Shown here piece by piece: positions 11,896 to 54,166 of a stretch of 64,000 nt of DNA (the first letter of the stretch is position 1; each line of letters begins with the position of its first letter). Source of the DNA: Mesorhizobium sp. Z1-4 (lineage in GTDB: Bacteria > Pseudomonadota > Alphaproteobacteria > Rhizobiales > Rhizobiaceae); assembly GCF_004000235.1 (NCBI RefSeq), contig NZ_RCIO01000001.1, forward strand, positions 682,001 through 746,000. The letters are read 5' to 3'. A program made the position numbers and the translations under genes. The notes beneath the pieces are model-generated. The model did no database searches and was not told the origin of the DNA. It was given only the letters and a program-made list of their open reading frames with translations.

Positions 11896-11938
11896 GCGGC
11901 ACGCCAAACCACGGTTTTCCACCGTCTGAGGCGCTTCG

Positions 11939-12719: not shown

Positions 12720-12731
12720 ACCAACCCGTTG

Positions 12732-12757: not shown

Positions 12758-12785
12758 GACAAGGGCCAAGTCAAAGGACCCGATT

Positions 12786-13250: not shown

Positions 13251-13345
13251 GGCGCCTCGCTGACGTCATCCTCGCCCTGTAGCGAGGCCGCCAGTCGGAA
13301 TCTTTCACGAACAGCTTCGCCGCCCAGGCGTGGATATCATCGCAG

Positions 13346-13368
13346 ATCCTCGGGACAGGCCCGAGGAT
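13346..13368. repeat. Palindromic intergenic repeat, copy 1
   Basis: ATCCTCGGG (13346-13354) and CCCGAGGAT (13360-13368) form a perfect 9-base stem with the 5-base loop ACAGG. The same stem recurs at 54953-54975. It lies in the 164-base gap between the convergent ptsN and DUF1150 genes, where a hairpin would suit as a bidirectional terminator or a dispersed repeat. Confidence 0.75.
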
Positions 13369-13414
13369 GACGGGTGAAACCGAAGCCGCTCACCCCGGCG
13401 GAAACGAACGCGCC

Positions 13415-13672
13415 CTAGTGTACGCTGACCGGTGTCAGATCGTTCTGCATGGCGCCGGCAAGCGCGCTTGCCTGTGCATCTGCCAGCAGAATGGGCGTGC
13501 CGTTGGCCGCAAAAACAGCCCAGAGCCTGGTGCCGGGCGCCATTTCGGGCGCGTCGGGGAAACGTTCCTTTAGTTCGGCGCTGTCGAATTCGCGAAGATA
13601 GGCCACGGTGCCTTCGCCAAGATGCGCCAGCTCCTCTTCGGAGAGGACATTTCTGGTCTCAAATTCAGTCAT
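13415..13672 (-). CDS. DUF1150 family protein
   Basis: This 85-residue soluble protein (EEELAHLGEGTVAYLREFDSAE, GTRLWAVFAANGTPILLADAQ) belongs to the alphaproteobacterial DUF1150 family, whose function is unknown. ATG 13672 has a strong AAGGAGG five bases upstream. It is directly downstream of hsp20 (73-base gap), an arrangement common in rhizobia. Co-expression with heat shock is inferred from this linkage. Confidence 0.85.
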   Translation of the reverse strand: MTEFETRNVLSEEELAHLGEGTVAYLREFDSAELKERFPDAPEMAPGTRLWAVFAANGTPILLADAQASALAGAMQNDLTPVSVH

Positions 13673-13745
13673 GCAAGCCTCCTTGCGTGCAGGAAGTCCC
13701 TTCTGACCAACCCGCTACAGAGCTTAATTTCGTGCGGGGCTGTAA

Positions 13746-14171
13746 TCAGTCTCGCACCGAAATGTTGATTTTTCGTACCAGCTTCTCGGGCTGGGGACGG
13801 TCGAGGTCGATGGACAACAGACCGTTCTTCAGCTCCGCGCCGGTGACGCGCATGCCTTCGGCCAGGACGAAGGTGCGCTGAAACTGCCGGGCGGCGATGC
13901 CGCGATGCAGAAATTCGCGCTCGGTGTCGTCGGCCTGGCGGCCACGTACGATCAGCTGGCTCTCTTCGGTCGACACGTCGAGCTCCTCGTCGGAGAACCC
14001 GGCCACTGCAAGCGTGATGCGCAGCTTGTCGGTGCCGCCTTCGGCGCCACGGATGCGCTCGATATTGTAGGGCGGGTAGCCGTCGGCTGATTTGGCGACG
14101 CGCTCGAGCGTCTTTTCCATCGTATCGAACCCCAGAAGCAGCGGGCTCGAGAAAGTCGACATACGTGTCAT
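13746..14171 (-). CDS. Hsp20 (alpha-crystallin family) small heat-shock protein
   Basis: The protein is 141 residues. It contains an alpha-crystallin domain (YNIERIRGAEGGTDKLRITLAVAGF, ELDVSTEESQLIVRGRQ, FLHRGIAARQFQRTFVLAEGM) with the GLLSIDL end motif and a C-terminal IxI-like KINISV. This class A rhizobial sHsp holds unfolded proteins for refolding. GAGGA sits seven bases before ATG 14171. An RpoH-type promoter is seen upstream (14237-14265). The nucleoside hydrolase gene is divergent. Confidence 0.92.
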   Translation of the reverse strand: MTRMSTFSSPLLLGFDTMEKTLERVAKSADGYPPYNIERIRGAEGGTDKLRITLAVAGFSDEELDVSTEESQLIVRGRQADDTEREFLHRGIAARQFQRTFVLAEGMRVTGAELKNGLLSIDLDRPQPEKLVRKINISVRD

Positions 14172-14236
14172 ACCGTGTCCTCAAAGAGCGACGTGGACAG
14201 ACGCAAACCCTTGTGGCGTTTTCGTCTTTGACACTG

Positions 14237-14265
14237 ATATGGTCCGCCGCAATTTCGAGTTCAAG
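14237..14265 (-). promoter_or_regulatory. Candidate RpoH (sigma-32) promoter for hsp20
   Basis: Read on the minus strand, CTTGAA (14265-14260) is followed by 17 bases and CCATAT (14242-14237). CTTGAA is the sigma-32 -35 consensus and CCATAT fits the CCCCATNT -10. It predicts a leader of about 60 bases before ATG 14171. Confidence 0.5.
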
Positions 14266-14285
14266 GGCAAGGAGTTGGGTTGAAC

Positions 14286-15230
14286 ATGAGCGGCGCGCGC
14301 AAGATCATTATCGATACGGACCCGGGGCAGGACGATGCGGTGGCGATACTGCTTGCGCTGGCCAGCCCGGAACTCGACGTCGTCGGGATCACCGCGGTCG
14401 CGGGCAATGTGCCGCTTTCGTTCACCGAAAAGAACGCCCGCAAGATCTGCGAACTCGCCGGCCAGCCGGAAACACCCGTCTTTGCCGGTGCGGACCGGCC
14501 GCTTGAGCGGAAACTCGTGACTGCGGAGCATGTGCACGGCAAGACCGGGCTCGACGGCCCCGAGTTACCTGAACCCGCAATGCAGCTGCAGGACAGGCAT
14601 GCGGTGGATTTCATCGTGGAGACGCTCATGGCGGCCGAACCCGGGGAGATCACACTCTGCCCGCTCGGCCCGCTCACCAATATCGCACTGGCGCTGCGCA
14701 AGGAGCCGGCCATTGCGCCGCGCATCCGCGAGATCGTCCTCATGGGCGGCGGCTTCTTCGAGGGCGGCAACATCACACCGACGGCCGAGTTCAACATCTA
14801 TGTCGATCCGGAAGCGGCCGACATCGTTTTCCGCTCCGGCATACCGGTTACCATGATGCCGCTCGACGTGACCCACAAGGCGCTCTCGAGGGCCACGCGG
14901 GTCGAGGCCTTCCGCGACATCGGCAACCGTGCAGGGACCGCCGTCAGCGAGATGCTGTCCTTCTCGGAACGCTTCGACGAGGAAAAATACGGTACCGACG
15001 GCGGCCCGCTTCACGATCCCTGTGTGATCGCCTGGCTGATCAGGCCCGAGCTGTTCTCCGGCCGCGACTGCAATGTGGCAATCGAGCTGAAGTCCGAGCT
15101 GACGCTCGGCATGACGGTCATCGACTGGTGGCAGGTCACCAGCCGTCCGCACAATGCGCATGTGGTTCGCGACATCGACGCGGACGGCTTTTTCGCGCTG
15201 CTGACCGAGCGGCTGGCAAAGCTGCCCTAG
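14286..15230 (+). CDS. Inosine-uridine-preferring nucleoside hydrolase family protein
   Basis: This 314-residue hydrolase carries the Ca2+-binding signature DTDPGQDDAVA, followed by LCPLGPLTNIALAL and IVLMGGGFFEGGNITPTAEFN; HDPCVIA is the second metal/ribose site. The enzyme splits N-glycosidic bonds of nucleosides to base plus ribose in salvage. ATG 14286 gives the family-like start MSGARKIIIDTDPG. TTG 14280 is an alternative with better spacing (5 bases) from AAGGAG. Its 3' end overlaps that of the convergent ribokinase gene by four bases, and ribokinase is the next step for the ribose released. Confidence 0.92.
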   Translation: MSGARKIIIDTDPGQDDAVAILLALASPELDVVGITAVAGNVPLSFTEKNARKICELAGQPETPVFAGADRPLERKLVTAEHVHGKTGLDGPELPEPAMQLQDRHAVDFIVETLMAAEPGEITLCPLGPLTNIALALRKEPAIAPRIREIVLMGGGFFEGGNITPTAEFNIYVDPEAADIVFRSGIPVTMMPLDVTHKALSRATRVEAFRDIGNRAGTAVSEMLSFSERFDEEKYGTDGGPLHDPCVIAWLIRPELFSGRDCNVAIELKSELTLGMTVIDWWQVTSRPHNAHVVRDIDADGFFALLTERLAKLP

Positions 15231-37841: not shown

Positions 37842-39380
37842 TTAGTCAGGATCGCTGCCTTCCGCCTTGGTCTCGTCGGCGATCTTCGGCCGGAAATAAC
37901 GGCCGACGATCAGCGGCGCGATGAAGCCCAGTATCGCCAGCGTCCAAAGCCCGATCGCCAGCGGCGAGGCAACCAGTGCGGTCCAGTCGCCATCGGAAAT
38001 GGTGAGCGCACGGCGCAGGTTCTTTTCCATCTGGTCGCCCAGAAGCACGCCAAGGATCACCGGCACCAGCGGCACGTCCAGCTTGCGCAGCACCCAGCCG
38101 AGCACGCCGAAGATGATCATCACCTGCAGATCGAAGGACGATCCCGAAATGCCGTAAATGCCCACAAAGGAGATCATTGCCACCGCCGGCATCAGATATT
38201 TCGGCGGCACCAGCAGCACACGTACGAACATCGTCACCAGCGGTATGTTCATCGCCAGCAGCATGAGGTTGCCGATGAACAGCGCCGCGATCAGGCCCCA
38301 GACGACATCCGGGTTCGACTGGAAGAGCAGCGGGCCGGGCGTGATGTTGAGCGCAAGCAGCATGGCCAGAAGCACGGCCGTGGTGCCCGAACCCGGCACG
38401 CCCAGCGCCAGCATCGGCACCAGCGCGCCGCCGGCGGCGGCGTTGTTGCCGGCCTCCGGGGCGGCCACACCGCGCGGATCGCCCTTGCCGAAAGTGCCCT
38501 TGCGGTCGGAATAGCGCTTCTCGAATGTGTAGGCGATGAAGGAGCCCAGCGAGGCACCCGCACCCGGCAGAACCCCGGCGATGAAACCCAGCACCGTCGA
38601 GCGCGACATCGCACCCCAAGTCTTGTTGAGCATCGACATGGGCGGCGTCACACGCCCGATTTTCATCGATTCCGCAGTCGCCTCCGCCGCCGTCCCACGA
38701 CGCTCGAGAAACACAAACACCTCCGAAAGCGCGAACAGGCCGACGATCGCCACCAGGAAATCGATGCCGTCATAAAGATGCACTTCGCCGAATGTGAAGC
38801 GCGGCACGCCGGTCTGTCCGTCAACGCCGATGGTCGCGATACCCAGACCGAGCGCGGCCGCCAATGCCGCCTTGGCCTGGTTGCGGCTGGCGATGCCGCC
38901 AAGCGTGGCAAAGGCCAGCGTGAACAGGGCAAAATATTCGGCTGGACCGAACAGAAGCGCCACCTTCACCAGCTGCGGCGCTAGGAAAACCAGACCCCAG
39001 GTGGCGAAGAACGCACCGACAAACGAAGCGATGCCCGACAGCGCCAGCGCTTCGCCAGCCATGCCCTGTTTGGCCATCGGGTGGCCGTCGAGCGTCGTCA
39101 TCAGCGCCGGCTCGTCGCCCGGAATGTTGAGCAGGATCGATGAAATTCGGCCGCCATACATGGCGCCGTAATAGACGCTGGTGAGCAGGATCAGCGCCGG
39201 TGCCGCCGGCAGGCCGAGCGTGAAGGCAAGCGGAATGAGAATGGCAACGCCATTCGAGGGACCGAGGCCCGGCAGCGCGCCGAACACGGTGCCGAGAAAG
39301 CAGCCGAGCAGAGCCAGGCCGAGATTCTGCCAGGTGAGCGCGACGGCAAAACCATCTGCGAGAGCGGAAAGCGTTTCCAT
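37842..39380 (-). CDS. tctA: Tripartite tricarboxylate transporter large permease TctA
   Basis: The 512-residue permease has about 10-12 transmembrane helices and the TctA signatures GALPGLGPSNGVAILIPLAF and NIPGDEPALMTTLDGHPMAKQG, plus GVLPGAGASLGSFIAYTFEKR and LGVPGSGTTAVLLAMLLALNI in the second half. It takes up tricarboxylates or other small organic acids with TctB and TctC. Its start is two bases after the tctB stop. A short soluble tail ends DETKAEGSDPD. Confidence 0.93.
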   Translation of the reverse strand: METLSALADGFAVALTWQNLGLALLGCFLGTVFGALPGLGPSNGVAILIPLAFTLGLPAAPALILLTSVYYGAMYGGRISSILLNIPGDEPALMTTLDGHPMAKQGMAGEALALSGIASFVGAFFATWGLVFLAPQLVKVALLFGPAEYFALFTLAFATLGGIASRNQAKAALAAALGLGIATIGVDGQTGVPRFTFGEVHLYDGIDFLVAIVGLFALSEVFVFLERRGTAAEATAESMKIGRVTPPMSMLNKTWGAMSRSTVLGFIAGVLPGAGASLGSFIAYTFEKRYSDRKGTFGKGDPRGVAAPEAGNNAAAGGALVPMLALGVPGSGTTAVLLAMLLALNITPGPLLFQSNPDVVWGLIAALFIGNLMLLAMNIPLVTMFVRVLLVPPKYLMPAVAMISFVGIYGISGSSFDLQVMIIFGVLGWVLRKLDVPLVPVILGVLLGDQMEKNLRRALTISDGDWTALVASPLAIGLWTLAILGFIAPLIVGRYFRPKIADETKAEGSDPD

Positions 39381-39382
39381 GA

Positions 39383-39814
39383 TCAGAACCCCCAGGGGCC
39401 GCGTGCGAGCGACAGGCCCAGCACGAGATGGAACATGACATAGATGCCGAGCGAGGTGACAATGCCGGCGATAACAGCCGCAATCGCGTGCGCTCCCAGA
39501 CGCCAGGCCAGAAAGGCGGCGGCAACGGCGGTGGACACGACAAATCCCGCCTCGGGCAGCGCCATCGTGTAGCCGACCATGACCGCGACGGCGAAGCCGA
39601 TCTCCGCCAGCCGGCCGATTGCCGGCCACTCAGGCTCGGTATCTGGACGCCAGATGAAATAAGCCGCCGACAGCAAAACCACCGTGCCGATGATGAGCGG
39701 AAACGCCTTCGGTCCAACGGGGTCGGATAAAAAACTCTCTTCGATGATTGTGGCCCGCCAGATGTACAGAACACCCAGCAAAAAGGCACATGCGCCCAAT
39801 ATCCGGTCGCTCAT
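39383..39814 (-). CDS. tctB: Tripartite tricarboxylate transporter small permease TctB
   Basis: This 143-residue protein has four transmembrane helices in the order expected for TctB: one at the start (LGACAFLLGVLYIW), PVGPKAFPLIIGTVVLLSAAYF, then two helices around 70-135. It forms the membrane part with TctA. It sits between tctC and tctA; a strong hairpin separates it from tctC. Confidence 0.88.
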   Translation of the reverse strand: MSDRILGACAFLLGVLYIWRATIIEESFLSDPVGPKAFPLIIGTVVLLSAAYFIWRPDTEPEWPAIGRLAEIGFAVAVMVGYTMALPEAGFVVSTAVAAAFLAWRLGAHAIAAVIAGIVTSLGIYVMFHLVLGLSLARGPWGF

Positions 39815-39843
39815 TGTCGTGTCCTCCCCACGCCAAGATACAA

Positions 39844-39880
39844 TTCGGCCCCCGCTGCCACAAGAACTGCGGGGGCCGAA
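39844..39880 (-). other. Strong intercistronic hairpin between tctC and tctB
   Basis: TTCGGCCCCCGC (39844-39855) and GCGGGGGCCGAA (39869-39880) form a perfect 12-base stem with a 13-base loop. No T-run follows on the minus strand. Such hairpins downstream of binding-protein genes usually protect the upstream message or attenuate the downstream genes. Confidence 0.65.
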
Positions 39881-39888
39881 GGGAAATC

Positions 39889-40869
39889 CTACTTGAGGAT
39901 GCCGATCTTCTTCGAAAGGTCGGTGATGGATGCTACGGATTCGGCAACGAAAGCCTGGAACTCATCGCCGCGCAGGTTAAGCGGGGCTAGGCCGTTCTGT
40001 GCCATGACCTCTTTCCACTCCGCCGAATCGTAGACCTTGCCGACGGATTCGACCCAGTAGTCGTAGGCGTCGTCGGACATGCCGCCCGGCGCGTAGAAGC
40101 CGCGCCAGTTGGCGCCAACCACGTCAATGCCCTGCTCCTTGGCCGTCGGGAAGGACGCGAAGTCGCCTTCCAGGCGTTCCGGTGCAAGCACCGCGATCAC
40201 GCGAATGTCGCCGGAGTCGACAAAACCCTTGGCTTCCGAAGCGTCGCCGGTGAAGGCCTGCACGGAACCAGCGAGCAGCTGCGTCACGGCCTCGCCGCCG
40301 CCGTCGAAGGCAACATATTTGATGACACGGACGTCATCGATGCCGGCCTTGTTGGCTGCGAGCAACACCTTGAGGTGATCCCAGCCGCCAACGGCCGAGC
40401 CGCCGGCGATCGACACGGAGGTCGGATCGGCCTTGATCATGTCGATCAGCTCGGGGAGCGTCTGGACCGGCGAATCCTTGGCAACGGCGATGATGCCGTA
40501 GTCGGCGCCAACCGAAGCGACCCAGCGAACCTGATCCATGGTGTTGCCGGGGTATGCGCCCTGCGCGAGGCGCGTCGAGGTGGCCGAAGATGCCGCAACG
40601 ATGAGGTTGTTCTCGTTGTTGCGCTTGTTGACGACCTCGGCGTAAGCGACGCCGCCGCCGCCGCCGGCGAGGTTGACGACCTGCATGGTGCCCGGGACGA
40701 GCGACAGATCCTGCAACGTCTTGCCGACCTGGCGGCAGGTGAAGTCCCAGCCACCGCCCGGGTTAGCAGGTGCGATACATTCGGTGTTTGCGGGATCGAA
40801 GGCAAAAGCCGACGTAGCCAGTGACGCCGCGACCACCGCTGCGGCCGCAGTTATTTTTGCGAATTTCAT
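39889..40869 (-). CDS. tctC: Tripartite tricarboxylate transporter substrate-binding protein (TctC/Bug)
   Basis: This 326-residue periplasmic protein has a signal peptide (1-23, SAFA-F) and the Bug-family features: ECIAPANPGGGWDFTCRQVGKTL at the ligand-cradle start, NLAGGGGGVAYAEVVNK, and GGSAVGGWDHLKVLLAANKAGI. It captures an organic acid for TctAB. GGGAGGAAG lies before ATG 40869. It is divergent from tctD, whose product probably regulates it. Confidence 0.92.
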   Translation of the reverse strand: MKFAKITAAAAVVAASLATSAFAFDPANTECIAPANPGGGWDFTCRQVGKTLQDLSLVPGTMQVVNLAGGGGGVAYAEVVNKRNNENNLIVAASSATSTRLAQGAYPGNTMDQVRWVASVGADYGIIAVAKDSPVQTLPELIDMIKADPTSVSIAGGSAVGGWDHLKVLLAANKAGIDDVRVIKYVAFDGGGEAVTQLLAGSVQAFTGDASEAKGFVDSGDIRVIAVLAPERLEGDFASFPTAKEQGIDVVGANWRGFYAPGGMSDDAYDYWVESVGKVYDSAEWKEVMAQNGLAPLNLRGDEFQAFVAESVASITDLSKKIGILK

Positions 40870-40896
40870 ATCTTCCTCCCATGAGCGACGAGCGCA

Positions 40897-40951
40897 TTGC
40901 GCGCCCGCTCAGGCAGTTCCTATAATCAGTCCAGCTGTCATGAAGCTGTCA
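40897..40951 (+). promoter_or_regulatory. tctD promoter with a direct-repeat regulator site
   Basis: TTGCGC (40897-40902), an 18-base spacer and TATAAT (40921-40926) precede tctD. Immediately downstream AGCTGTCA occurs twice (40933-40940 and 40944-40951), 11 bases apart, the spacing of OmpR-type regulator dimers. It probably is the TctD box for both divergent transcripts. Confidence 0.5.
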
Positions 40952-40963
40952 GCGGGAGGAAAT

Positions 40964-41647
40964 GTGCGGCTGCTTGTTGTTGAAGATGCTGGCGACGTCG
41001 CCGACGCCATAACGGCGCGGCTGTCCCGCCACGGCCATGTCTGCGACAAGGCCGGTACGCTGGACGAGGCGCGGCAGCTGATTGCCGTGCAGCCGCTCGA
41101 CCTCATTATTCTCGACATCAACTTGCCCGACGGATCCGGCTTCGACCTCGTGCGCGAACTGCGCCGCCAGGGCAACGAGACGCCGGTGCTGGTGCTGTCG
41201 GCCCGCATGGGCGTGGATGACCGTATCGACGCGCTCGATTCAGGCGCCGACGATTACCTGGTTAAACCGTTCGACCTGCGCGAACTTGAGGCACGCGTGC
41301 GTGCGGTGGCGCGCCGGCGCCATGGCGAGACGGACGCGGTGCTTGAGGCCGGCGATATTCGTTTCAACACCGCGACCCGGCAAGTGACTGTGGGCGGGAC
41401 GGCATGCGAACTCACGCGGCGCGAGCAGACGGTGCTGGAAATCCTGCTCAATGCGCGCGGGCGCGTCATCCCGAAGGAGGACCTGCACGCACGCCTGTTC
41501 GGCCTCGACGAGGAAGCCGGGCTCAATGCAGTCGAGGTCTATGTTGCGCGGCTGCGCAAGAAAATCCCCTCCGATTCGCTCGACATACGTACCCTGCGCG
41601 GTCTCGGTTATCAGGCTTTCGTGAAATCGAATGACACCCGCATCTGA
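40964..41647 (+). CDS. tctD: Two-component response regulator TctD
   Basis: The 227-residue OmpR-family regulator has a receiver domain with acidic pocket residues near 7-10, phosphoacceptor Asp51 in LIILDINLPDGSG, and KPFDLRELEARV. The C-terminal winged helix has ELTRREQTVLEILLNARGRV and VEVYVARLRKKI. GTG 40964 is preferred over the in-frame ATG 40940 because GGAGG precedes it and MRLLVVED is the family start. It overlaps tctE by 17 bases. Confidence 0.9.
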   Translation: MRLLVVEDAGDVADAITARLSRHGHVCDKAGTLDEARQLIAVQPLDLIILDINLPDGSGFDLVRELRRQGNETPVLVLSARMGVDDRIDALDSGADDYLVKPFDLRELEARVRAVARRRHGETDAVLEAGDIRFNTATRQVTVGGTACELTRREQTVLEILLNARGRVIPKEDLHARLFGLDEEAGLNAVEVYVARLRKKIPSDSLDIRTLRGLGYQAFVKSNDTRI

Positions 41648-43040
41648 GGCCCTGAATACGGCGCGGCCGGCGCGGCGCAAGCCGTCGCTTGCGCTCAGAA
41701 TCGGCGTCGCCGTCACGCTGGTCGTTGCGCTGGCCGCAACGGCTGCGCTGTTTTCGGCCTGGCGTTATGGCTGGCAGGCCGCTAACGAGGCGTTCGACCG
41801 GCTGCTGACCGGTGCGTCGCTGCAGATCGTCGAGCGCATTGGCGTGGTCGACGACAGCATCGTCGTCGACATTCCGGCCTCGGCCTTCGAACTTCTGGCA
41901 CTGGCGCGGGAAGACCGCGTCTTCTATCGCGTCATCGGCCCTGACGGCACAACTCTGACCGGTTATGACGACCTGCCGGCGCTCGAGGTGCCGGAAGATG
42001 GCGGCACCGAAATCTACGAGACGCAATATTCGGGCGAGACGGTGCGCGCCGCCGTTACCGGACGGCAGCTTGTGGAGCGCAATGTCAGCGGGCTGGTCAC
42101 GGTCGTCGTTGCGCATACGATGCGCGAGCGCACGGTGCTTGCGCATGATATTGCGACCAAGGCAGCGATCCTGGTCGGCGCAGCCTCTCTGGCCATCATC
42201 GCGCTGGCGCTGGCCGGCGTGCTTTATGGCCTTTCGCCGCTGACGCGGGTGGAGCGGGCATTGCTGTCGCGCGATCCCAACGATCTGTCGCCCTTCGAGA
42301 TCGAGACGCCGCGCGAAATCGAGACCGTTGTCGATGCGATCAACCGGTTCACACGCCGTCTCGACCGCCGCATAGGTTCCGTGCAGGCGTTCGTTGCCGA
42401 TGCGGCACATCAATTGCGTACACCGATCACCGCCATTCGGGCGCAGGCCGAAATCGCGGCGGAAGAGAAAGACCCGGAGCGGTTGGCGCGGCTCAACAAG
42501 CGTATTCTCGACCGTGCGATCGGCGTCAGCCGCCTTGCGGACCAGCTGCTGAGCCATGCCATGGTGACGCACCGCGCCGACGCGGAGCCGCGCGAGCTGC
42601 TCGATCTCAGGCGCATTGCCATGGAGGCGGAAGAAGAAAGCCAGAGGCTCGGCGATGCCGACCTGCCGCCGCCGAAACTCGATCTACCGGACGAGGAGGT
42701 GCTGATTGCCGGCGACCGGTTCAGCCTGCGCGAGGCGGTGAAGAACCTGATCAACAACGCGCAGACGCACGGCAAGGCGCCGGTTTCGATCAACGTGCGC
42801 ATGCTCGATGGGTTTGCCCGGGTCAGCGTCAGCGATTTCGGCCGCGGCATACCGGCAGACAGGCGCGACCAGGCCGGTGAACGGTTCCGCGGCGGCGGTG
42901 CGTCCCGCACGGGAGCGGGGCTCGGCCTTGCCATCGTAGCCGAGGTGGCGCAATCGCATGGCGGCAAGCTCGAGTTCGCCGACCTGCCCGGCGGCGCTTT
43001 CGAGGCTGCGATCATCTTGCCGACAAAGGCTGATCAATGA
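41631..43040 (+). CDS. tctE: Sensor histidine kinase TctE
   Basis: This 469-residue kinase has TM1 (about 22-44), a periplasmic sensor domain (about 45-176, a 2CSK-N-type fold with REDRVFYRVIGPDGTTLTGYDDLP), TM2 (about 177-200), a HAMP-like linker and the HisKA H-box FVADAAHQLRTPI with His260. The N (NLINNAQTHG), G1 (VSDFGRGIP) and G2 (GAGLGLAIV) boxes are present. It senses a carboxylate-type signal and phosphorylates TctD. It overlaps the next gene by four bases. Confidence 0.92.
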   Translation: MTPASEALNTARPARRKPSLALRIGVAVTLVVALAATAALFSAWRYGWQAANEAFDRLLTGASLQIVERIGVVDDSIVVDIPASAFELLALAREDRVFYRVIGPDGTTLTGYDDLPALEVPEDGGTEIYETQYSGETVRAAVTGRQLVERNVSGLVTVVVAHTMRERTVLAHDIATKAAILVGAASLAIIALALAGVLYGLSPLTRVERALLSRDPNDLSPFEIETPREIETVVDAINRFTRRLDRRIGSVQAFVADAAHQLRTPITAIRAQAEIAAEEKDPERLARLNKRILDRAIGVSRLADQLLSHAMVTHRADAEPRELLDLRRIAMEAEEESQRLGDADLPPPKLDLPDEEVLIAGDRFSLREAVKNLINNAQTHGKAPVSINVRMLDGFARVSVSDFGRGIPADRRDQAGERFRGGGASRTGAGLGLAIVAEVAQSHGGKLEFADLPGGAFEAAIILPTKADQ

Positions 43041-44101
43041 TGCGGTTCGTCGTCCCTGTGCTCGCCTGCCTCATGCCTTGCGTGTGCGCGGCGGAAGACT
43101 ATTCGTTTCCAGCCATCGCCGATGAAGGAAGCCGCCTCGTAATCGGCAGCACCACCGATATCGGTGTCATACGGACCGTGATCGACGCCTTTCAGGTGTT
43201 AAATCCAGGCATCGCCATTACTTACCGCGAGGAAACAACCCAGCAGCTATTCGTTGAGGCGGGGGAAGCCTGCGCGGGCAACCGCCGGGCCGACGACCTC
43301 ATCATTTCGTCGGCAATGGACCTGCAGGTGAAACTGGTCAACGACGGCTGCGCCAGCGAGATCGCAGCCACCGCGCTTACCGCCCTGCCCGACCACGCAC
43401 GCTGGCGCGACGAGCTGTTCGGGCTCACCTACGAACCGGCGGTCATTGTCTACAACCGCAAGCTGATCGCGCCGTCGGAAGCGCCGCTCGACCATATCGC
43501 GCTCGCCGACCTTCTGCGCCAGCCCGACCGTTTCCACGGCAAGATCGGCACCTATGATATCGAGCAGTCCGGCGTCGGCTATCTGTTCGCGACCTTCGAT
43601 GCCGCGCAGTCTTCCACCTGGGGCCGGCTGATCGAGGGCATGGGCCGCAACGCGGTTCAGCTGTTCTGCTGCACCTCGGACGTGCTCGACCGTGTCGCCG
43701 ACGGGCGGCTTGCCATCGGCTACAATGTACTCGGCTCCTATGCGCTGACGGAGGCCGAACGGTATCCCGACATGGCAATCGTGGTGCCGAGCGACTATGC
43801 GCTGGTGCTTTCGCGTGCCGCCTTTATCCCCGTCGGCGCTTCGAACAGCGGCGACGCGCTGAAGTTTCTGGAGTTCACCCAGTCGCCCCAGGGGCGTGCC
43901 GTGCTTGACCGGGACGCGCGGCTGTTTTCGCCCGTCAATGGCGCCGAGCAGCTGCTCGACGTAGCGGGGATGGCTGAAAACGCCCACCAGTCGCTGCGCC
44001 CCATCCCGCTCGGCACATCGCTTCTGGTGGGCCTCGACGCGATGAAGCGCCGGCAGTTTCTGAAGCTTTGGCGGGACTCGCTGGCGACCGGCCGCGACTG
44101 A
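43037..44101 (+). CDS. Periplasmic substrate-binding protein linked to tctDE
   Basis: The 354-residue protein has a signal peptide (about 1-18, VCA-A) and an extracellular solute-binding fold like iron(III)/Fbp-type binding proteins: LVIGSTTDIGVIRTVIDAFQVLNPGIAITYRE, DDLIISSAMDLQVKLVNDG, FGLTYEPAVIVYNRKLI, VPSDYALVLSRAAFIPVGA. No permease or ATPase gene is beside it. ATGATG at 43037 overlaps the tctE stop, so it is part of the regulatory operon and probably an accessory sensor that presents ligand to TctE; this role is inferred. Confidence 0.78.
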   Translation: MMRFVVPVLACLMPCVCAAEDYSFPAIADEGSRLVIGSTTDIGVIRTVIDAFQVLNPGIAITYREETTQQLFVEAGEACAGNRRADDLIISSAMDLQVKLVNDGCASEIAATALTALPDHARWRDELFGLTYEPAVIVYNRKLIAPSEAPLDHIALADLLRQPDRFHGKIGTYDIEQSGVGYLFATFDAAQSSTWGRLIEGMGRNAVQLFCCTSDVLDRVADGRLAIGYNVLGSYALTEAERYPDMAIVVPSDYALVLSRAAFIPVGASNSGDALKFLEFTQSPQGRAVLDRDARLFSPVNGAEQLLDVAGMAENAHQSLRPIPLGTSLLVGLDAMKRRQFLKLWRDSLATGRD

Positions 44102-44183
44102 GGCACGGCCCGCGAAATTGCCGCCCGGCCGACTTGCCATCGCCGCATTCGCGGGCAAGATGTTCCGCGGGCTTGGGTTTTTG

Positions 44184-47100
44184 ATGCGCTTTATCGTCGG
44201 ATTTCTGTTTTTTCTCCTGATCGGCAGCTGCGGCGCACACGCAGAGCGGCGTGTGGCGCTTGTCATGGGTGCGGACGGCTACGAAACCATCCGGCCGCTG
44301 GACAATGCAGTCTCCGACGCCATCGCCATGAAGGACGCACTGGAGACGCTTGGTTTTGAGGTGTTCCTCGAAACCGACCGCGACCTGAGGCGCATGCGCC
44401 GGGCGCTGGAGGATTTCGTCTACGACGCGGAGAAGGCCGACGTCGCGCTCGTTTTCTTCGCCGGTCATGGCGTCGAGATCGACGGGCGCAACAGACTGTT
44501 GCCGGTGGATGCCGACGCAAGCTCGCTCGAAGCGCTGGAAAAAAGCACGCTGGCGCTTGAGGAGGTCCGCGACACCGTGGCCGAGATTGCGCCGATCGGC
44601 CTGATCGTGCTCGATGCCTGCCGCGACGACCCATTCGGCGCGCCGGGCGATGCCGGAGGGCGCGGAGCAACCGCGTTGTCCGCCCCTGAGTTGCCGGCGT
44701 CGGTGAAACCTGGCCTTGGCCGCATGGGGCGTTCGGAAAACGTCCTGTTCGCATTCGCGGCGGCACCGGGCGAAACGGCAGCGGACGGGACCGGAGACAA
44801 TTCGCCATTCACCGCGGCACTGACCAAATACCTCGCCACGGACGGGCTCGAAATCCGCTCGGTTCTGACGCTTGTCCAGCAGGAGGTTTACGACAGGACA
44901 CGCGGCCGCCAGCTCCCTTATGTCGAGAGCGGTCTGCCGAAGACGTTCTTTGCCTCGACCTCACGCGATGAACTGCCTGAGCGCGAGCGCCTGTTGCTGG
45001 CGATGGCGGATGTGACGCCGCAGATGCGCGATGAGGTCGAGCGCATCGCGGCGGAAAACGACATGCCGCTCGCGCCGCTCTATGGCGCTCTGGTCGGATC
45101 CGACCTGGTCGGGCTTTCCATCGACGACAGGCGCGCCAAGCTGACGGAAGCGGCCGTGGCCTTCGGCGAAACCCGCAACAGGCTGCGGCTATTGTCGTCA
45201 AGCGATCCCCAGGTGACACAGCTGCGGCTTCAGGCCGAGGACAGCCTGTCCCTCGGTGCGCTTGCCGAAGCGGGCGATCTACTTGAGCACGCCATCGCCA
45301 TAGACGACGAATCTCGGCGCACCGTCGGCAATGCCTTTCTGGAAAGAACATTGTCGCAGGCGGCCTCGCTGCAGGCGCGCGCCGGCGTGGCGCGAACCGC
45401 GCTCGCGCATACAGCTGCGATCGCCGCATTGGAGGATGCCGCCGAGCTTCACCGGCAGATCGCTGCGCTCGACGTTGCCGACGGCGCGCGCGGCGACCGC
45501 AACCTGCTTCTGATGGAACTCGGCAATCTCTACAGGCTCGTCGGCGATACGACGAAGGCGCTCGATGCGTTCCAGCGCATGCGCGATGCGGCGACCCGAA
45601 GAGCTGAAGCCTCGCCGGAAAATCCGGCTGCAAGACTTGACCTATCGACAAGCCACAACGGGATCGGTTCGCTCCTACTGGCGCGCGGCGATCTCGCCGG
45701 TGCGCTGGAGGCTTACCGGGAAGCCACTGCCATTCGCGAGCGCCTCGCCGCCGCGTATCCCGACAACTACAGCCTGCAGGGCGACCTTTCCGAGAACCTG
45801 AGCAGACTGGCCCGCGTGCTGGCCGAGCAGGGTAACCGCGCCGAAGCACTCGATTCATACGGGGCCAGCCTCGCCATTCGCCAGCGGCTGGCCGAAATCG
45901 ATCCCGGCAACGCCGACTGGAAGCGTGCACTCGCAATCACTCACAGCCGCATGGGCGATCTTCATGCGACGTTCGGCGACTTGCGCCGTGCAACTGCCGA
46001 CTATGAGGCGAGCCTCGCGATCTCCATGCAGCTGGCGGACCAAAACCCGGTCAACACCGACTGGCAGCATGGGCTTGCGCTTGGTCATGCCAAGATGGGC
46101 GATGTGCTGGCGAGGCAGGGTTTTCTCACACACGCGCTGACAGCCTACCGCGCCAGCCTCGATACGCAGTCGCGGCTCGTTGCGTCTGACCCCGCGAACA
46201 CGACCTGGCAGCGCGATCTGTCGGTGATGCAGAACGAAATCGGCAACGTGTTCGCAAAGATGGCGAACTACGCCGAGGCGCTGGCTGCCCACCGAGACAG
46301 CCTTGCGACCCAGGCGCGGCTCGTCGCGCTCGATCCCACCAATACGACCTGGAAACGCGATTATGCGCTAGGCCAGGTAAGTTATGGTGATCTGCTGTCG
46401 GCGACCGGCGATCTTGACGGAGCGCTGGCTGCCTTCCGTGCAGGTCAGGCTCTGCTGCAGCAGCTTGCGGCGGTCGATCCCGGCAACATGTTCTGGCAAT
46501 GGGATATCGCCAGCGGCCACGACCGCATCGGCGATGCACTTCTGGCGCGGCGCGACCCGGAAGGAGCCATAAGCGCTTATCGGAGCGCACTAGAGATTGC
46601 CGAGCGGCTCGTTGCGGCGGATCCCGGCAATATGGAGCTGCAATTCAGCCTTTCGTCGGTCCATATCAGCATCGGGGATGCGCTCAGCCAGGACGGAAAC
46701 CACGCCGAAGCGTTGAAAATCTACGAGGCCGCGCTTGCTGTTCGCCAGCGGGTGGTCGCCTCCAATCCCACCAATTCCGGCTGGCAGCACGGCCTCGCAA
46801 TCGCATACGAGAGGGTTGGCGATGCGCGGCGCAGGTCGGGCGATGCTGCCGGTGCACTGGCGGCATACCGCGCCGATCTGGCAATCATCGAAGGCCTGGC
46901 ATCGGCGGAACCTGCCAACGCCGCCTGGCAGAACAGCCTCTTGCTGGTTCAGGTCAGGATCGGCGACGCGCTCAGGGCGCGCGGCGACCGAGAAGGCGCA
47001 CTGGCGGCCTATCAGGAAGCTCTCGCCATCCGCGAACGCCTGGCCGCCGCAAACCCCGGACAGGCCGTGCTGCAACATCGCCTTTCGGTTCGCCAGGTCG

Positions 47101-47402
47101 TCGTCGGCGACATGCTGCGCGAACTGGGCAAGCCGGAAAGCGCGCTGAAATATTATCGGGCCAGTCTGGCCATTCACGAAACGCTTCTGGCCGCCGACCC
47201 GCACAATGGCGCGCGCCAGCGCGACCTGCTCATTTCGCATTACAAGATCGCAAAAGCCGGGGGCGAACCGCATAAGCATTTCCGCGCCGCGCTCGACATC
47301 GCCGAAAGGATGGAAAAGGCCGGTCGTCTGGCGCCAGCCGACCGCTCGATGCCGGACATTTTGCGGGCGGAACTCGACGCGCTCGGCGCTGCCGCCGACT
47401 AG
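44184..47402 (+). CDS. Secreted caspase-like protein with twelve 48-residue TPR-type repeats
   Basis: The 1072-residue protein has a signal peptide (MRFIVGFLFFLLIGSCGAHA-E). A caspase (C14) domain spans about 22-270, with VALVMGADGYETIRPLDNAVSDA, His95 in VFFAGHG and Cys146 in VLDACRDDPFG. An intervening helical region (about 280-440) follows. Residues 444-1019 are exactly twelve tandem 48-residue TPR-like units with no insertion or deletion, typically IGDxLxARGDxxGALAAYR...DPxN. The C-terminal 53 residues are helical. It is probably periplasmic, with the repeats binding a partner and the caspase acting as protease; no substrate is known. ATG 44160 is an alternative start. It follows the tctDE-linked binding protein gene by 82 bases. 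Confidence 0.85.
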   Translation: MRFIVGFLFFLLIGSCGAHAERRVALVMGADGYETIRPLDNAVSDAIAMKDALETLGFEVFLETDRDLRRMRRALEDFVYDAEKADVALVFFAGHGVEIDGRNRLLPVDADASSLEALEKSTLALEEVRDTVAEIAPIGLIVLDACRDDPFGAPGDAGGRGATALSAPELPASVKPGLGRMGRSENVLFAFAAAPGETAADGTGDNSPFTAALTKYLATDGLEIRSVLTLVQQEVYDRTRGRQLPYVESGLPKTFFASTSRDELPERERLLLAMADVTPQMRDEVERIAAENDMPLAPLYGALVGSDLVGLSIDDRRAKLTEAAVAFGETRNRLRLLSSSDPQVTQLRLQAEDSLSLGALAEAGDLLEHAIAIDDESRRTVGNAFLERTLSQAASLQARAGVARTALAHTAAIAALEDAAELHRQIAALDVADGARGDRNLLLMELGNLYRLVGDTTKALDAFQRMRDAATRRAEASPENPAARLDLSTSHNGIGSLLLARGDLAGALEAYREATAIRERLAAAYPDNYSLQGDLSENLSRLARVLAEQGNRAEALDSYGASLAIRQRLAEIDPGNADWKRALAITHSRMGDLHATFGDLRRATADYEASLAISMQLADQNPVNTDWQHGLALGHAKMGDVLARQGFLTHALTAYRASLDTQSRLVASDPANTTWQRDLSVMQNEIGNVFAKMANYAEALAAHRDSLATQARLVALDPTNTTWKRDYALGQVSYGDLLSATGDLDGALAAFRAGQALLQQLAAVDPGNMFWQWDIASGHDRIGDALLARRDPEGAISAYRSALEIAERLVAADPGNMELQFSLSSVHISIGDALSQDGNHAEALKIYEAALAVRQRVVASNPTNSGWQHGLAIAYERVGDARRRSGDAAGALAAYRADLAIIEGLASAEPANAAWQNSLLLVQVRIGDALRARGDREGALAAYQEALAIRERLAAANPGQAVLQHRLSVRQVVVGDMLRELGKPESALKYYRASLAIHETLLAADPHNGARQRDLLISHYKIAKAGGEPHKHFRAALDIAERMEKAGRLAPADRSMPDILRAELDALGAAAD
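45513..47240 (+). repeat. Twelve tandem 144-base coding repeats (48-residue TPR units)
   Basis: From Met444 of the caspase-TPR protein the sequence divides into twelve units of exactly 144 bases, each carrying G at position 4, a GD-type turn near 11-12, ALxxY at 16-20 and P near 35. Units are diverged from each other in DNA, so the array is old, not a recent slippage product. Confidence 0.8.
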
Positions 47403-47481
47403 CCGCCGCGCAAATCCCGCCGGCGCTGCGCTGCCGCCCCGTGCCGCGGGCATTTCCTCCCCACCCAAATCGCCGGCAAAC

Positions 47482-47510
47482 CTTCCAAAACGGGGCCTGA
47501 ATCCCTATAT
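47482..47510 (+). promoter_or_regulatory. Candidate promoter for gyrB
   Basis: CTTCCA (47482-47487), a 17-base spacer and CTATAT (47505-47510), the rhizobial -10 form, lie in the 182-base gap before gyrB. The -35 is weak. Confidence 0.35.
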
Positions 47511-47548
47511 CTTGGGGACCTGAATCAATGCGATTCGCCGCACTTTGA

Positions 47549-50059
<2,511 letters not shown>

Positions 50060-50089: not shown

Positions 50090-53000
50090 CTACCAGCCAC
50101 GCAGCCGGCGCCGTACCTTCGCTTCGGTATCTTCCCACTGAGCCTCGCGCTCGTAGGAGTCCGCGATACTGCTCAGAACGTTCGCGACATACGGAAACTC
50201 ATATCCAAGCTTCGTTGCCCAGCCTCGGTATTTCGCCGCAAGCTCGCGTTCTTGGTCACCGCCTTCGCCTCGCCAATGAACGCCGCGGCTGTTTCTGGTT
50301 CCAACCTGGAAACCGCTACTGACTTCAGGCGAGCTCATCCATTCCAGAGCATCGCACACTGCACGGCATGGCCAGACACCATCGTCATCGGCAGGCGCCT
50401 TGCAAAGTAGTTGCCCGATCCGCCCGTCGGTGACATCAGCCCTCGCCAATTCGTTGGCTTGCTCGCGAACTGCCATAAGCCAGTCCCTAAGTTTGTCGGG
50501 CTGAATCACCCCGTTCTTATCCGTTCCCGGAATCTTTCGCATGCGCTCCAGCAGGTGGAACGCCGATCGCGCCATGTCAGCGCCGCGCTCGGGATCGACT
50601 TGAAGCTCTTCCGGATCGTCACTTTCATCGTCGCGCTTGAAGACATAGGCGATTGCTTGAACGAACAGACTCGGCGATTCCGCGATCTGATTCTCCAGAT
50701 TAGGAATGCCATGTTCCGAGTCTTCAAGTACGCGCAGATAAATGAACTCGAGTTGCGCCATCTCGTCGGGCCTAATCCCGGGGCGACCGTTGAGTTCCTT
50801 GATCGCTTCACCAATGTCATAGGCGGACAGTTGGTGTGTAGTTACGCTCTCGGGTTCGGTCGTGGCCAACGCACGAAGCAGGCGTTTGAGGCGAGATGTT
50901 TCTATCTTTTTCCAATCCAGGTGGAGAACGTTGAATGCTGCCGCTGGCCTATCGACCTCCAATAGCCGGTCGACAATTTCATTGACTTCGTCCGACCGGT
51001 GGTCGGCCCAATATGCGTTCACCTGCCGCCAATAGTCGCTGCGGAAAGCCTCAGGCTTGGCGTCCATCAACCGCCAAGTTTGCTCGCGAAAGGGCATCGA
51101 CAGGAAAAAGAAGAGCACTTCATCCTGTCCAAATGATTTCTCCACCTCAGTTGCCAGGAATGATACACGGTCTTCGTCGAGCTTGCCCCGAAGCAGGCCA
51201 CCCAGGCAGTCCGCAAATTTTGCTCGCAACTCCCCGGACGCGGCAGTGACACAATTCTTCGCGAACTCTGCCAGTGCCTCCCGGCCCTTCAGAAGCTCGA
51301 CCATCAACTGGCCGACAATGTGAGGTGCGCCACTTCCCGCAACCAAATGCTTGATGCCGTCAAAACCCCGCGCTTTCCAGATTTCACGCAACGCTTCCAG
51401 CCGCTGATCATGGATCAGTTTGTGCCGGTTCTCGAAGCTGAAATCCTCGTCCTCGTATTCGCCATAAGACGGTTCGATCCAATGCGCTGCAAACAGCCAC
51501 GCATGGCGGGCAACAAGATCGTTGGGTAGCAGCTTCTCGAGAACCTTTGCTGCGCGATCGGCGTGGGCCTTCGTTATTCCTCTCTTGCGGCTTCTCCTGG
51601 ATAGCGTATGACGACGGATGCGCTCGCGCATTGTCGCCTTGGCGTCTTCACTCGCCGTTCCATCCGCCCACTTTTCCACCAAGTCCCAAACCTTGGCTTG
51701 ATCTTCCGGTGCGAGAACGGTCAGCCGTTCAATGAGATCGCCAAGAGTCGATTCATCATGGTTGGGCCAACCCAACGCAATATCGACCGCGCGCAGAACG
51801 AATTGGTTTCGCTCACCCACCGTAATTGGCTGGCCGGCACCGGAGGCGTCGGCACGCCAACGCGGACGATGATTATAGTGGCCAACCTCCGAATGAGCCC
51901 GAAATTGTGCCATACAAATCTTCCAGCCGACATCGGGGTATCGCTTGACCAGTAGATTGAGCGCGCTGATCCGATCGACCAGTCGGGCAGCTGTTTGCGG
52001 CATCCATGATCGAAAGATCGATCGCAGCGTTTCCTCAGGCTTGTTGACCCAATTGTCGTCGATCTTCGGTCGCGACAACTGCGCCAGAATGTCTATGACC
52101 CGCGTCAGATGGGCCGGGTCCCATGCGATATTCTCCAATGCCCACAGCAGGCCAGTACGGGCCGGACTGCTTCCAAAAACCGAGTTGTCAACCGGCTTCA
52201 AGAGGCCGAAAATAACTGGCGCGGGACTCGCTAGGTCCTCCTCCAATAGCCGCAAGAACACGTGCGGGGCGGCCTCGGCATAATTCGGCAAATCGCTGTT
52301 TTGTGAGTGGAACTTGTCGAGCGAAAGTGGCTTCATGAGGCTGCGGACCAAGGCCTTGACCTCGCTGTCGGCGTCGAACCCAAGCCGCTCAAAGAAGAGC
52401 GTGTTACCGTGAACGGCAAGCAAGACGAGCGTCTCGCAAACCCCACTTCTCAGTGCTGACGAATGATCGCGTACCTTGCCATAGACACCCGCCATCCAGC
52501 GCTGATCTTCCGGTAGGTCAAGTGCGGGGTCCCGCTCAGACAAGACGTATTCTGCAGCCACCAGGAAGTCGCGAAGGTCCTTGTTAGTGATCGACCCAGC
52601 GATGGCAAACAGCGCATCAATCTTCGACGTCACGCCGCGATACTGGCCCGCGGACCAGAGAGGTGGATCATCAAACTTCAAAAAGCGCGGTATCTCGGCC
52701 TCAAAAGCGTCGTATTCGATTCCGGCCAGAAGCGAGACCACTTCTCGATCCGCCTTTGAACTGGCATGCCACGCGCCGATGAGGACAGCAGGAATGAGCC
52801 TACGGGCGACATCGTCGTTCTGCGCCCATTCCGGCGTTCGAATGCTGCCAGGATGATGCAGACGGCGGCGGAGTATCGTGGGGGAGCGGGCCGACTCGCG
52901 CGCGAGGCGATCGGCGGCATCTCCCTCGATTCCCATGTCTCCCAGTGCCTTCTCAAAATCCTCCGATCTCAGGAGGTCCAGACTTGCGTCGGGGTCGGAG

Positions 53001-54166
53001 TCCACGGCATTGCGCGGTCGAACGATAACGCAGTGGAACTTCTTGAACAGGGGTGCCAGCTCCCGCTCGATTTCGGGCTGCTCCGCAATGGCGACGAATG
53101 ATCCCGAAGATGCCTTCGACATCATTCGCACGGCTTCCACTGTATCAAAGACGATCGAATCGTCCCCGGAGCGCGGAGCCGTCATCTTTTCGGAATCAAC
53201 TAGGCAAGCCAGAAAGGCCAGTGCCTCTGCGCGGGAATCGGCGGCAACCATGAACGGCCTGCTGGGTGGCTGGCTCAGCCAGCGCGAGAACGTCTCCGCG
53301 TAGCTGTTAATGGCCGGTGCGAAAAGTAGAGGCGACAATTCATAGTCGCCTGCCGGAGCCCAATTAGCCCAACACTGGCTGAGCGATCGATACCCGGTCG
53401 TCGGCTTTCCGAGCCGCTCGGCCAACCAAACCTGAACAGGGGCCGACTGTTCCAACCACTGTTCGATATCGCTGGCATCAAATGCCTTTACATCTTTCCA
53501 CTCCCCCAGTGCTTTCTTCGCCTGCGCCCACTCCTTCTTTGCCGGCCAGTTGCGCGGCGTGAAAAAGACGAAGGTGGTTTCCGTGCGTTCCTTGGCAGGA
53601 ATTGACGCAACCCGCGCATCAAAATCCCCGTCGGCCTTGGTCTTGGGGTTCTTGTTGCATCCGAACTCCCATCCTGATTTTCCCTGTGGAATCCAAGGGG
53701 TCGGTGAACCGGCCTCAACAAACCCGTCCCATCCCTTGCGCTCTGCATTATCAAACGCGGGAAAATCAACCGTTGTCAGATCAAGGCCTGTCGAATTGAC
53801 GAGCCTTCTCAGCAAGGCGGGCAGTTCGGACCTTGCAGCAATGTCATCCGCCCATGCGGAAAGTTCTGCCGCTTTGGTCAAGGCGACCGTCGGCGTGTAC
53901 CCACGGATCACGACAGGCTTGCTTGTATCTTCCTTGGCCCGCGCGTCGAAGCGGCTCTGCATTTCGATGAGCTTGTTTCGATCTGCACCAAACGCTTTCT
54001 CAAGTCGCGCTGCCATCTCTGTTGAGAGCGCTGCCTTGCCGTTGAGAAAATTCGAAAGGGCCGGGCGGCCGACACCCAAAAGTTTTGCCGCGTCTTTCAC
54101 CGTCACGTCCCGGGGAATGACGTGCTCCTTTACAAACGCGCCGGGATGGCCGGCATTTGCAGGCAT
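50090..54166 (-). CDS. Giant HTH-fused protein with putative nuclease-like and NTPase-like regions; unknown, defence/toxin-like
   Basis: The frame encodes 1358 residues. Residues 19-60 are a HigA/Xre-type HTH (DAAKLLGVGRPALSNFLNGK). About 110-253 contains a block with D147 (GWDGF), E167 (GWEFG), K176/K178 and a TFVFFTPRNWPAKKEW strand, then FDASDIEQWLEQS; it resembles a diverged PD-(D/E)xK-like nuclease region, but the motif is not canonical. About 265-390 (FMVAADSRAEALAFLACLVD, SFVAIAEQPEIERELAPLF) looks like an NTPase core that lacks a Walker A. The remaining 900 residues look largely helical with no motif I know. Two hand-counted lines (52381, 53641) gave 55% and 52% GC against 70% in one gyrB line, suggesting transfer. 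ATG 54166 has GAGAGG seven bases upstream. I do not recognise the family; a defence or toxin-like role is inference from the HigA fusion and the foreign look. Confidence 0.8.
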   Translation of the reverse strand: MPANAGHPGAFVKEHVIPRDVTVKDAAKLLGVGRPALSNFLNGKAALSTEMAARLEKAFGADRNKLIEMQSRFDARAKEDTSKPVVIRGYTPTVALTKAAELSAWADDIAARSELPALLRRLVNSTGLDLTTVDFPAFDNAERKGWDGFVEAGSPTPWIPQGKSGWEFGCNKNPKTKADGDFDARVASIPAKERTETTFVFFTPRNWPAKKEWAQAKKALGEWKDVKAFDASDIEQWLEQSAPVQVWLAERLGKPTTGYRSLSQCWANWAPAGDYELSPLLFAPAINSYAETFSRWLSQPPSRPFMVAADSRAEALAFLACLVDSEKMTAPRSGDDSIVFDTVEAVRMMSKASSGSFVAIAEQPEIERELAPLFKKFHCVIVRPRNAVDSDPDASLDLLRSEDFEKALGDMGIEGDAADRLARESARSPTILRRRLHHPGSIRTPEWAQNDDVARRLIPAVLIGAWHASSKADREVVSLLAGIEYDAFEAEIPRFLKFDDPPLWSAGQYRGVTSKIDALFAIAGSITNKDLRDFLVAAEYVLSERDPALDLPEDQRWMAGVYGKVRDHSSALRSGVCETLVLLAVHGNTLFFERLGFDADSEVKALVRSLMKPLSLDKFHSQNSDLPNYAEAAPHVFLRLLEEDLASPAPVIFGLLKPVDNSVFGSSPARTGLLWALENIAWDPAHLTRVIDILAQLSRPKIDDNWVNKPEETLRSIFRSWMPQTAARLVDRISALNLLVKRYPDVGWKICMAQFRAHSEVGHYNHRPRWRADASGAGQPITVGERNQFVLRAVDIALGWPNHDESTLGDLIERLTVLAPEDQAKVWDLVEKWADGTASEDAKATMRERIRRHTLSRRSRKRGITKAHADRAAKVLEKLLPNDLVARHAWLFAAHWIEPSYGEYEDEDFSFENRHKLIHDQRLEALREIWKARGFDGIKHLVAGSGAPHIVGQLMVELLKGREALAEFAKNCVTAASGELRAKFADCLGGLLRGKLDEDRVSFLATEVEKSFGQDEVLFFFLSMPFREQTWRLMDAKPEAFRSDYWRQVNAYWADHRSDEVNEIVDRLLEVDRPAAAFNVLHLDWKKIETSRLKRLLRALATTEPESVTTHQLSAYDIGEAIKELNGRPGIRPDEMAQLEFIYLRVLEDSEHGIPNLENQIAESPSLFVQAIAYVFKRDDESDDPEELQVDPERGADMARSAFHLLERMRKIPGTDKNGVIQPDKLRDWLMAVREQANELARADVTDGRIGQLLCKAPADDDGVWPCRAVCDALEWMSSPEVSSGFQVGTRNSRGVHWRGEGGDQERELAAKYRGWATKLGYEFPYVANVLSSIADSYEREAQWEDTEAKVRRRLRGW

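What the first reader, a model, noticed from the sequence alone, without database searches (positions are those of the whole stretch)
44184..47402. Secreted caspase with twelve exact 48-residue TPR units next to a sensory operon
Twelve units with no indel from residue 444 to 1019 is striking regularity. The protein has an intact His95/Cys146 pair and lies 82 bases after the tctDE-binding-protein genes. It is the second secreted caspase-family protein in the window; bacterial caspase-TPR proteins have few known roles.
Basis: partly seen in the sequence, partly recalled or inferred. Interest (0 to 1): 0.6.

Follow-up and report, generated by a model that had tools for sequence, protein, structure and literature searches.

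The report
Exported caspase-like protease with helical-repeat tail
A bacterium related to rhizobia carries a gene for a probably exported caspase-like protease with a long, very regular helical-repeat tail; it is a new example of a known kind of protein, and the sensory genes beside it look like unrelated neighbours.

Summary
ORF 44184-47402 (1072 aa) has an export-signal-like N-terminus, a Peptidase C14 caspase domain with His95/Cys146, and twelve indel-free 48-residue TPR units at 444-1019. "Exact" is true of unit length only: units are 17-58% identical. The predicted model makes each unit two antiparallel helices of 20-21 residues. D45 and D144 align with MALT1's acidic S1 residues, D201 only weakly, so cleavage after Arg/Lys is expected.

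The "sensory operon" link is not supported. Of 20 orthologous loci read, 17 have the caspase beside gyrB; none of the 20 shows the tct/two-component/binding-protein block in the DNA fetched. Two same-genus genomes (GyrB 98% identical) keep the sensory block but lack the caspase; two others lack both. The 48-residue period is conserved, the number is not (about 1 to 12). The regularity belongs to the repeat class: a protein with no caspase match has twelve hits at strict 48 spacing, a TIR protein nine.

Best reading: an exported caspase-type protease with a TPR docking scaffold, sporadic in its family (15 of 297 genomes). Substrate unknown.

The parts
44184..44243 (+). Export signal of residues 1-20 (MRFIVGFLFFLLIGSCGAHA), likely cut before Glu21; Cys16 also fits a loose lipobox (lipobox rule recalled)
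   Evidence: Read from sequence. The pattern A-x-A then E[RK]R is in all 10 relatives printed (12 were asked; G296 and G154 were not caught by the search pattern).
44247..44951 (+). Caspase (Peptidase C14) domain, residues 22-256, His95/Cys146 dyad, Asp45/Asp144/Asp201 as putative S1 pocket
   Evidence: Pfam PF00656 E 1.6e-38; alignment to MALT1; fold match to MALT1.
44952..45218 (+). Conserved linker, residues 257-345 (PERERLLLAMADVTPQMR... PLAPLYGAL), helical in the model, a signature of this ortholog family
   Evidence: 50 of 89 positions invariant among the window protein and five Mesorhizobium-type orthologs; no Pfam match listed in this stretch.
45219..45512 (+). Degenerate helical region, residues 346-443, leading into the repeat array
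   Evidence: Helices in the model; only weak hits to the repeat profile.
45513..47240 (+). Twelve 48-residue TPR units, residues 444-1019
   Evidence: predicted two helices of 20-21 residues per unit, 10-residue block means of pLDDT 74 or more from residue 441 to 1070.
47241..47399 (+). C-terminal cap, residues 1020-1072
   Evidence: Helical in the model; GRLAP-type motif shared with Mesorhizobium-type orthologs.
47459..47585 (+). gyrB upstream block with CCTATAT, between the caspase stop and the gyrB start; marks gyrB as having its own promoter
   Evidence: CCTATAT block present upstream of gyrB in 12 of 12 loci printed, with and without a caspase; the consensus scanner, however, reported no sigma-70 match here.
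47585..50059 (+). gyrB, the conserved neighbour
   Evidence: Pfam; adjacent in 17 of 20 orthologous loci.
37842..44101 (.). tctA, tctC (minus strand), response regulator, histidine kinase, binding protein (plus strand): neighbours, not part of the conserved unit
   Evidence: Pfam; present without the caspase in G001 and G005.

Best explanation
The gene makes an exported (periplasmic or secreted) caspase-type cysteine protease. Shown: C14 domain, intact His/Cys dyad, regular long-helix TPR array, a conserved signal-like N-terminus, orthologs at a gyrB-adjacent locus. Inferred: after export and signal cleavage before Glu21, the C14 domain cleaves proteins after Arg or Lys, using an acidic S1 pocket (D45, D144, probably D201); the twelve-unit TPR superhelix holds a substrate or an activating partner so that cleavage is selective; the gene is transcribed on its own or as a tail of whatever lies upstream, not as a dedicated output of the tctDE pair. 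The ortholog is an accessory gene, often kept beside gyrB by common descent rather than by a joint function. Substrate and phenotype are unknown.
For: C14 domain E 1.6e-38 and TPRs. Dyad intact in 19 of 20 rows (window plus 18 relatives); the twentieth, G157, is cut off by its contig end before these residues. D45 and D144 align with MALT1 D365 and D462 (residue roles seen in passages of PMC4357240); D45 lies in NA/P-x-x-D in 17 rows by pattern and in two more by eye. A C14-part model (mean pLDDT 68, pTM 0.65) matches MALT1 best (E 1.9e-12, TM 0.51 by query). Solenoid predicted well. A-x-A/E signal pattern in 10 of 10 relatives printed. After residue 25 the only Cys is Cys146, as in 13 of 18 relatives with a readable active site, which suits an oxidising compartment but is weak evidence. 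Independence of the sensory genes.
Against: No enzymatic or localisation data. D201 to E500 rests on a 0.3-bit segment. The caspase part of the full-length model is poor (many residues below pLDDT 50). No consensus promoter was found in 43950-44350, and the one terminator-like site before the gene is no more than chance (1 against 0.6 expected), so read-through from the binding-protein gene is open. Four of 21 loci (G032, G004 third copy, G154, G630) show no gyrB in the DNA fetched, so the gyrB site is not universal. One copy (G297) carries an in-frame TAG.
Confidence: 0.6

Rival explanations
1. The caspase is the dedicated output or partner of the sensory operon: the TctDE-like pair and the binding protein sense a ligand and switch on the protease.
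For: Same strand, 82-base gap; no clear promoter or terminator in the gap.
Against: The five sensory/tct genes are absent from all 20 orthologous loci read (stretches of about 10-20 kb, some cut by contig ends); G001 and G005 have the sensory block without the caspase.
Confidence: 0.1
2. The protein is not exported but stays in the cytoplasm or is held at the membrane (uncleaved helix or lipoprotein through Cys16), acting as an intracellular effector like other caspase-TPR proteins.
For: TPR arrays of this unit also occur in a TIR protein without an obvious signal (L021). Residues 13-17 (IGSCG) allow a lipoprotein reading.
Against: Hydrophobic N-terminus and A-x-A/E kept in 10 of 10 relatives printed, none of them with a Cys at the window's place.
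Confidence: 0.15
3. The C14 domain is mainly a binding or scaffold module and the protein is not a working protease.
For: Pseudo-enzyme caspases with TPRs exist in Alphaproteobacteria (FS variants; passages of PMC6426788).
Against: His and Cys kept in 19 of 19 rows that reach the site, and the C14 part is the best-kept part (153 of 235 positions invariant against 98 of 384 in 444-827).
Confidence: 0.08
4. The conserved gyrB neighbourhood reflects a joint function, for example stress control of gyrase expression or of cell death.
For: 17 of 20 loci hold gyrB, 14 of them with the caspase upstream on the same strand.
Against: Two loci are convergent and one divergent; gyrB keeps its own upstream block with or without a caspase; an exported protein could hardly act on GyrB; G001, G002, G003 and G005 do without it.
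Confidence: 0.05

Closest known systems
Bacterial caspase homologues of family C14 (orthocaspases/bacterial metacaspases) with TPRs
   Same: C14 domain, His-Cys dyad, protein-binding repeats; TPR_1 and TPR_2 are among the four commonest extra domains of bacterial metacaspases (passages of PMC3501461).
   Different: Long-helix 48-residue units, twelve of them; conserved signal; family-specific linker 257-345; gyrB site.
Orthologs in Mesorhizobium (L050, L051, L053, L054) and L052 ('Bacterium M00...')
   Same: 47-48% identical over the whole protein, same layout, same gyrB neighbour.
   Different: 7-8 main units instead of 12; no sensory block.
MALT1 paracaspase
   Same: Closest solved relative by sequence and by model; acidic S1 pocket.
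   Different: Human, with Ig domains (recalled); no TPR array.
48-residue TPR arrays of other alphaproteobacterial proteins (L017, L021 TIR, L033)
   Same: Same unit and period: L017 12 hits, L021 9 in row, L033 6 in row.
   Different: Other N-terminal parts; L021 has a TIR domain, L017 has no caspase match.
TPR-CHAT of type III-E CRISPR (Craspase)
   Same: Caspase-like peptidase joined to TPRs (recalled).
   Different: Not tested here by search; the window protein has an export signal and no CRISPR gene was among those identified by Pfam nearby.

Membership tests
Peptidase family C14 (caspase domain) | Match to the C14 profile over its length | tested here: met
   PF00656, 133 bits against cut-off 21.4, profile 1-233 of 233.
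Peptidase family C14 (caspase domain) | His-Cys catalytic dyad | tested here: met
   H95 and C146, aligned with MALT1.
Peptidase family C14 (caspase domain) | Proteolytic activity | not testable with these tools
   Needs enzyme assay.
Orthocaspase (p20 without p10, as defined in PMC6426788) | No p10 subunit domain | tested here: inconclusive
   The Pfam match covers the whole C14 model and a profile of this protein finds the p10 part of caspase-7 (positions 164-241, E 3.1e-6), so a p10-like half may be present.
Orthocaspase/metacaspase (Arg/Lys specificity) | Acidic S1 pocket | tested here: met
   By alignment only: D45 and D144, D201 weakly; structural roles from PMC4357240 passages.
Tetratricopeptide repeat | Tandem helix-turn-helix units with TPR profile match | tested here: met
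   Several TPR models over cut-off; two helices per unit; fold matches to TPR superhelices such as 1w3b, though with large rmsd.
EACC1-associated caspase (NCBIfam NF047832) | Score over curated cut-off | tested here: not met
   50.7 bits against 140.
Anti-phage defence caspase (PADLOC) | Strong match to a defence-system caspase model | tested here: inconclusive
   PDLC02987 at 25.8 bits, E 1.4e-6, partial; neighbours named by Pfam show no defence genes, but not every window gene was scanned (24 proteins scanned by Pfam).

The most novel reading that the evidence does not exclude
An exported caspase whose repeat array is a fast-changing recognition module: the protease half is kept (about 77% identity with G077) while the array gains, loses and re-sorts units (1 to 12), so that each lineage's copy may recognise a different extracellular or envelope target. 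It would be a secreted, Arg/Lys-cutting effector or envelope quality-control protease with swappable specificity, kept or lost at a standing site beside gyrB.
Probability: 0.12. Interest if true: 0.55.

Novelty: new member of a known kind. Interest (0 to 1): 0.3.

Why it matters
Roles of bacterial caspase homologues are largely unknown, and exported ones least of all. This family offers a natural comparison: very close same-genus genomes with and without the gene at the same site, which makes a simple deletion or gain test in a laboratory strain informative. It also shows how a repeat pattern and an accidental neighbour can suggest a sensory-protease circuit that comparison does not bear out.

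Tried and rejected
Sensory-operon output: rejected as the main reading.

Recent tandem amplification of the array: rejected; the closest DNA identity between units is 63%, and units 2-12 are on average 38% identical within the protein against 40% to the units of G077. Only the first unit has a clear partner in G077 (58%).

Gain or loss of the caspase in the window lineage: left open. The GyrB tree puts the window with G005, G001 and G002, all lacking the ortholog, and the caspase tree pairs it with G077 (100/98), whose GyrB falls in the next clade (94/96). This fits either repeated loss or one regain at the old site; most deeper forks of the caspase tree are unresolved.

Functional link with gyrB: considered and thought unlikely.

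Defence system: only a weak PADLOC match. EACC1 type: below cut-off.

How common the unit is: at E 1e-15 a 192-residue piece of the array (four units' length) found matches in 6 of 96 class-wide genomes, the own one included, so close versions are not widespread.

Papers: searches (two gave none). I found no paper in those listings on this family's function; the library holds open-licence papers only. PMC6426788, PMC3501461, PMC5756287, PMC4357240: passages only. Others: listing only.

Failures: script error; L018 gave no useful frame; G297 and G300 were missed by the pattern used for repeat counting and left out of it; G157 was left out of the caspase tree and G004 out of the GyrB tree; one search scored only 5 candidates per genome, up to 12.

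Full report
What is there. The ORF at 44184-47402 encodes 1072 residues. Pfam finds Peptidase_C14 at 22-256 and many TPR models behind it. Residues 444-1019 are twelve units of 48 with no indel; identity at lag 48 is 0.386 against at most 0.117 in 1000 shuffles. Units are 17-58% identical in protein and 34-63% in DNA, so they are regular in length, not copies of one sequence, and not recently amplified. A weak thirteenth follows at an offset of 42.

Structure. The full-length prediction (6 sequences; mean pLDDT 73, pTM 0.51) gives 10-residue block means of 74 or more from residue 441 to 1070 and two helices of 20-21 residues per unit; the caspase part is poor in that model. The caspase and linker alone give mean pLDDT 68 and pTM 0.65 and match MALT1 best (E 1.9e-12, TM-score 0.51 by query). 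The full model matches TPR superhelices such as the OGT domain 1w3b, with large rmsd as expected for long solenoids.

Active site. H95 and C146 align with the MALT1 catalytic residues; D45 and D144 align with D365 and D462; D201 faces E500 only in a 0.3-bit segment. The MALT1 S1 roles were seen in passages of PMC4357240; that alignment columns carry those MALT1 numbers is my count from the catalytic His. Passages of PMC5756287 state that the C14 members characterised, other than caspases, prefer Arg or Lys at P1. The dyad is intact in 19 of 20 rows; the other, G157, is cut by its contig end.

Export. The N-terminus is hydrophobic and ends A-H-A before E21. Ten of ten relatives printed (12 asked) have A-x-A followed by E[RK]R. 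No predictor was available. Cys16 allows a lipoprotein reading in the window protein.

Relatives. At E 1e-65 with residues 1-443 the ortholog is in 15 of 297 genomes of the family and 3 of 297 in an order-wide draw (own, G296 and G630). A genome-collection scan gave five further loci, four titled Mesorhizobium, 47-48% identical over the whole length. Repeat counts by profile: 12 in the window, about 8 in G077, 7 in G096 and G240, 7-8 in the Mesorhizobium-type set, 9 in one G004 copy, about 10 in G154, one in G032 (19 relatives, G297 and G300 not included). G630 has units with mixed spacing. So the period is conserved and the number is not. The C14 part has 153 of 235 positions invariant in the six-row alignment, residues 444-827 have 98 of 384; C14-part identity to G077 is 191 of 248 columns.

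The same unit elsewhere. L017 (854-residue frame, no caspase match in Pfam) has twelve profile hits at a strict spacing of 48, the two end ones weak; L021, with a TIR domain, has nine in row; L033 has six in row. The regularity is therefore a feature of this TPR class. At E 1e-15, however, a 192-residue piece of the array matched in only 6 of 96 class-wide genomes, own included.

Neighbourhood. Twenty orthologous loci were read. Seventeen hold gyrB: 14 with the caspase upstream on the same strand (in G297 with a gap of about 2.2 kb), two convergent (G096, G240) and one divergent (G004, where two caspases lie in tandem). L045 (G004), L046 (G032) and L081 (G154) show no gyrB in the fetched DNA, nor does G630. 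A P450 gene like that at 36400 is in 13 of the 20 (L043, L050-L054, L080, L082-L087). None of tctA, tctC, RR, HK or SBP is found in any of the 20, even at E 1e-5. Some stretches are short because contigs end.

Same genus. All six genus genomes have gyrB. G001 and G005 (GyrB 97.6% and 98.3%) have P450, tctA, tctC, RR, HK, SBP and then gyrB, without caspase; the SBP stop is followed within about 25 bases by the gyrB upstream block. G002 and G003 have P450 and gyrB side by side with neither block (G002 read). G004 (85% complete, fragmented) has three ortholog copies; its sensory block was not sought outside the two stretches read. So the two blocks come and go separately. The CCTATAT block before gyrB is in 12 of 12 loci printed, although the sigma-70 scanner reported no match.

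Mechanism. I commit to an exported Arg/Lys-type caspase protease whose TPR superhelix recruits substrate or partner (0.6). Export, specificity and recruitment are inferred; fold, dyad, array and neighbourhood are shown. Rivals are listed with their tests.

Known or new. Caspase homologues with TPRs are known: TPR_1 in 7.0% and TPR_2 in 5.8% of the bacterial metacaspases of PMC3501461, and 46 single-domain sequences there carry an N-terminal helix that may be a signal peptide (passages). Strict orthocaspase status (no p10) is inconclusive. I rate it a new member of a known kind, interest 0.3.

Noticed in passing
window 3977-5923 (+): Second caspase protein of the window: signal-like stretch, then two C14 stretches; the first has GHG and DACR, the second lacks the GHG motif (reads YAGASSHE) but keeps a Cys (DGCYGG).
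   Followed up: partly
window 50090-54166 (-): 1358-aa protein with an N-terminal helix-turn-helix and lower third-position GC (0.64), just downstream of gyrB; no match in the 24 loci searched at E 1e-5, G001 and G005 stretches included.
   Followed up: partly
window 635-2311 (-): One frame matches signal peptidase II at its start and zinc-type alcohol dehydrogenase behind it: a fusion or a sequence artefact.
   Followed up: no
L047 (own genome, contig C12), 3379-7008 and 11911-15594, minus strand: Two further large caspase proteins of 1210 and 1228 aa frames, about 5 kb apart, about 30% identical to the window protein, without the regular 48-residue array.
   Followed up: partly
L044 (G004) 8188-14571: Two tandem orthologs next to a divergent gyrB; a third copy lies on another contig (L045).
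   Followed up: partly
L084 (G297): Ortholog frame with one in-frame TAG and a 2.2 kb gap to gyrB; probably a decayed copy in that assembly.
   Followed up: no
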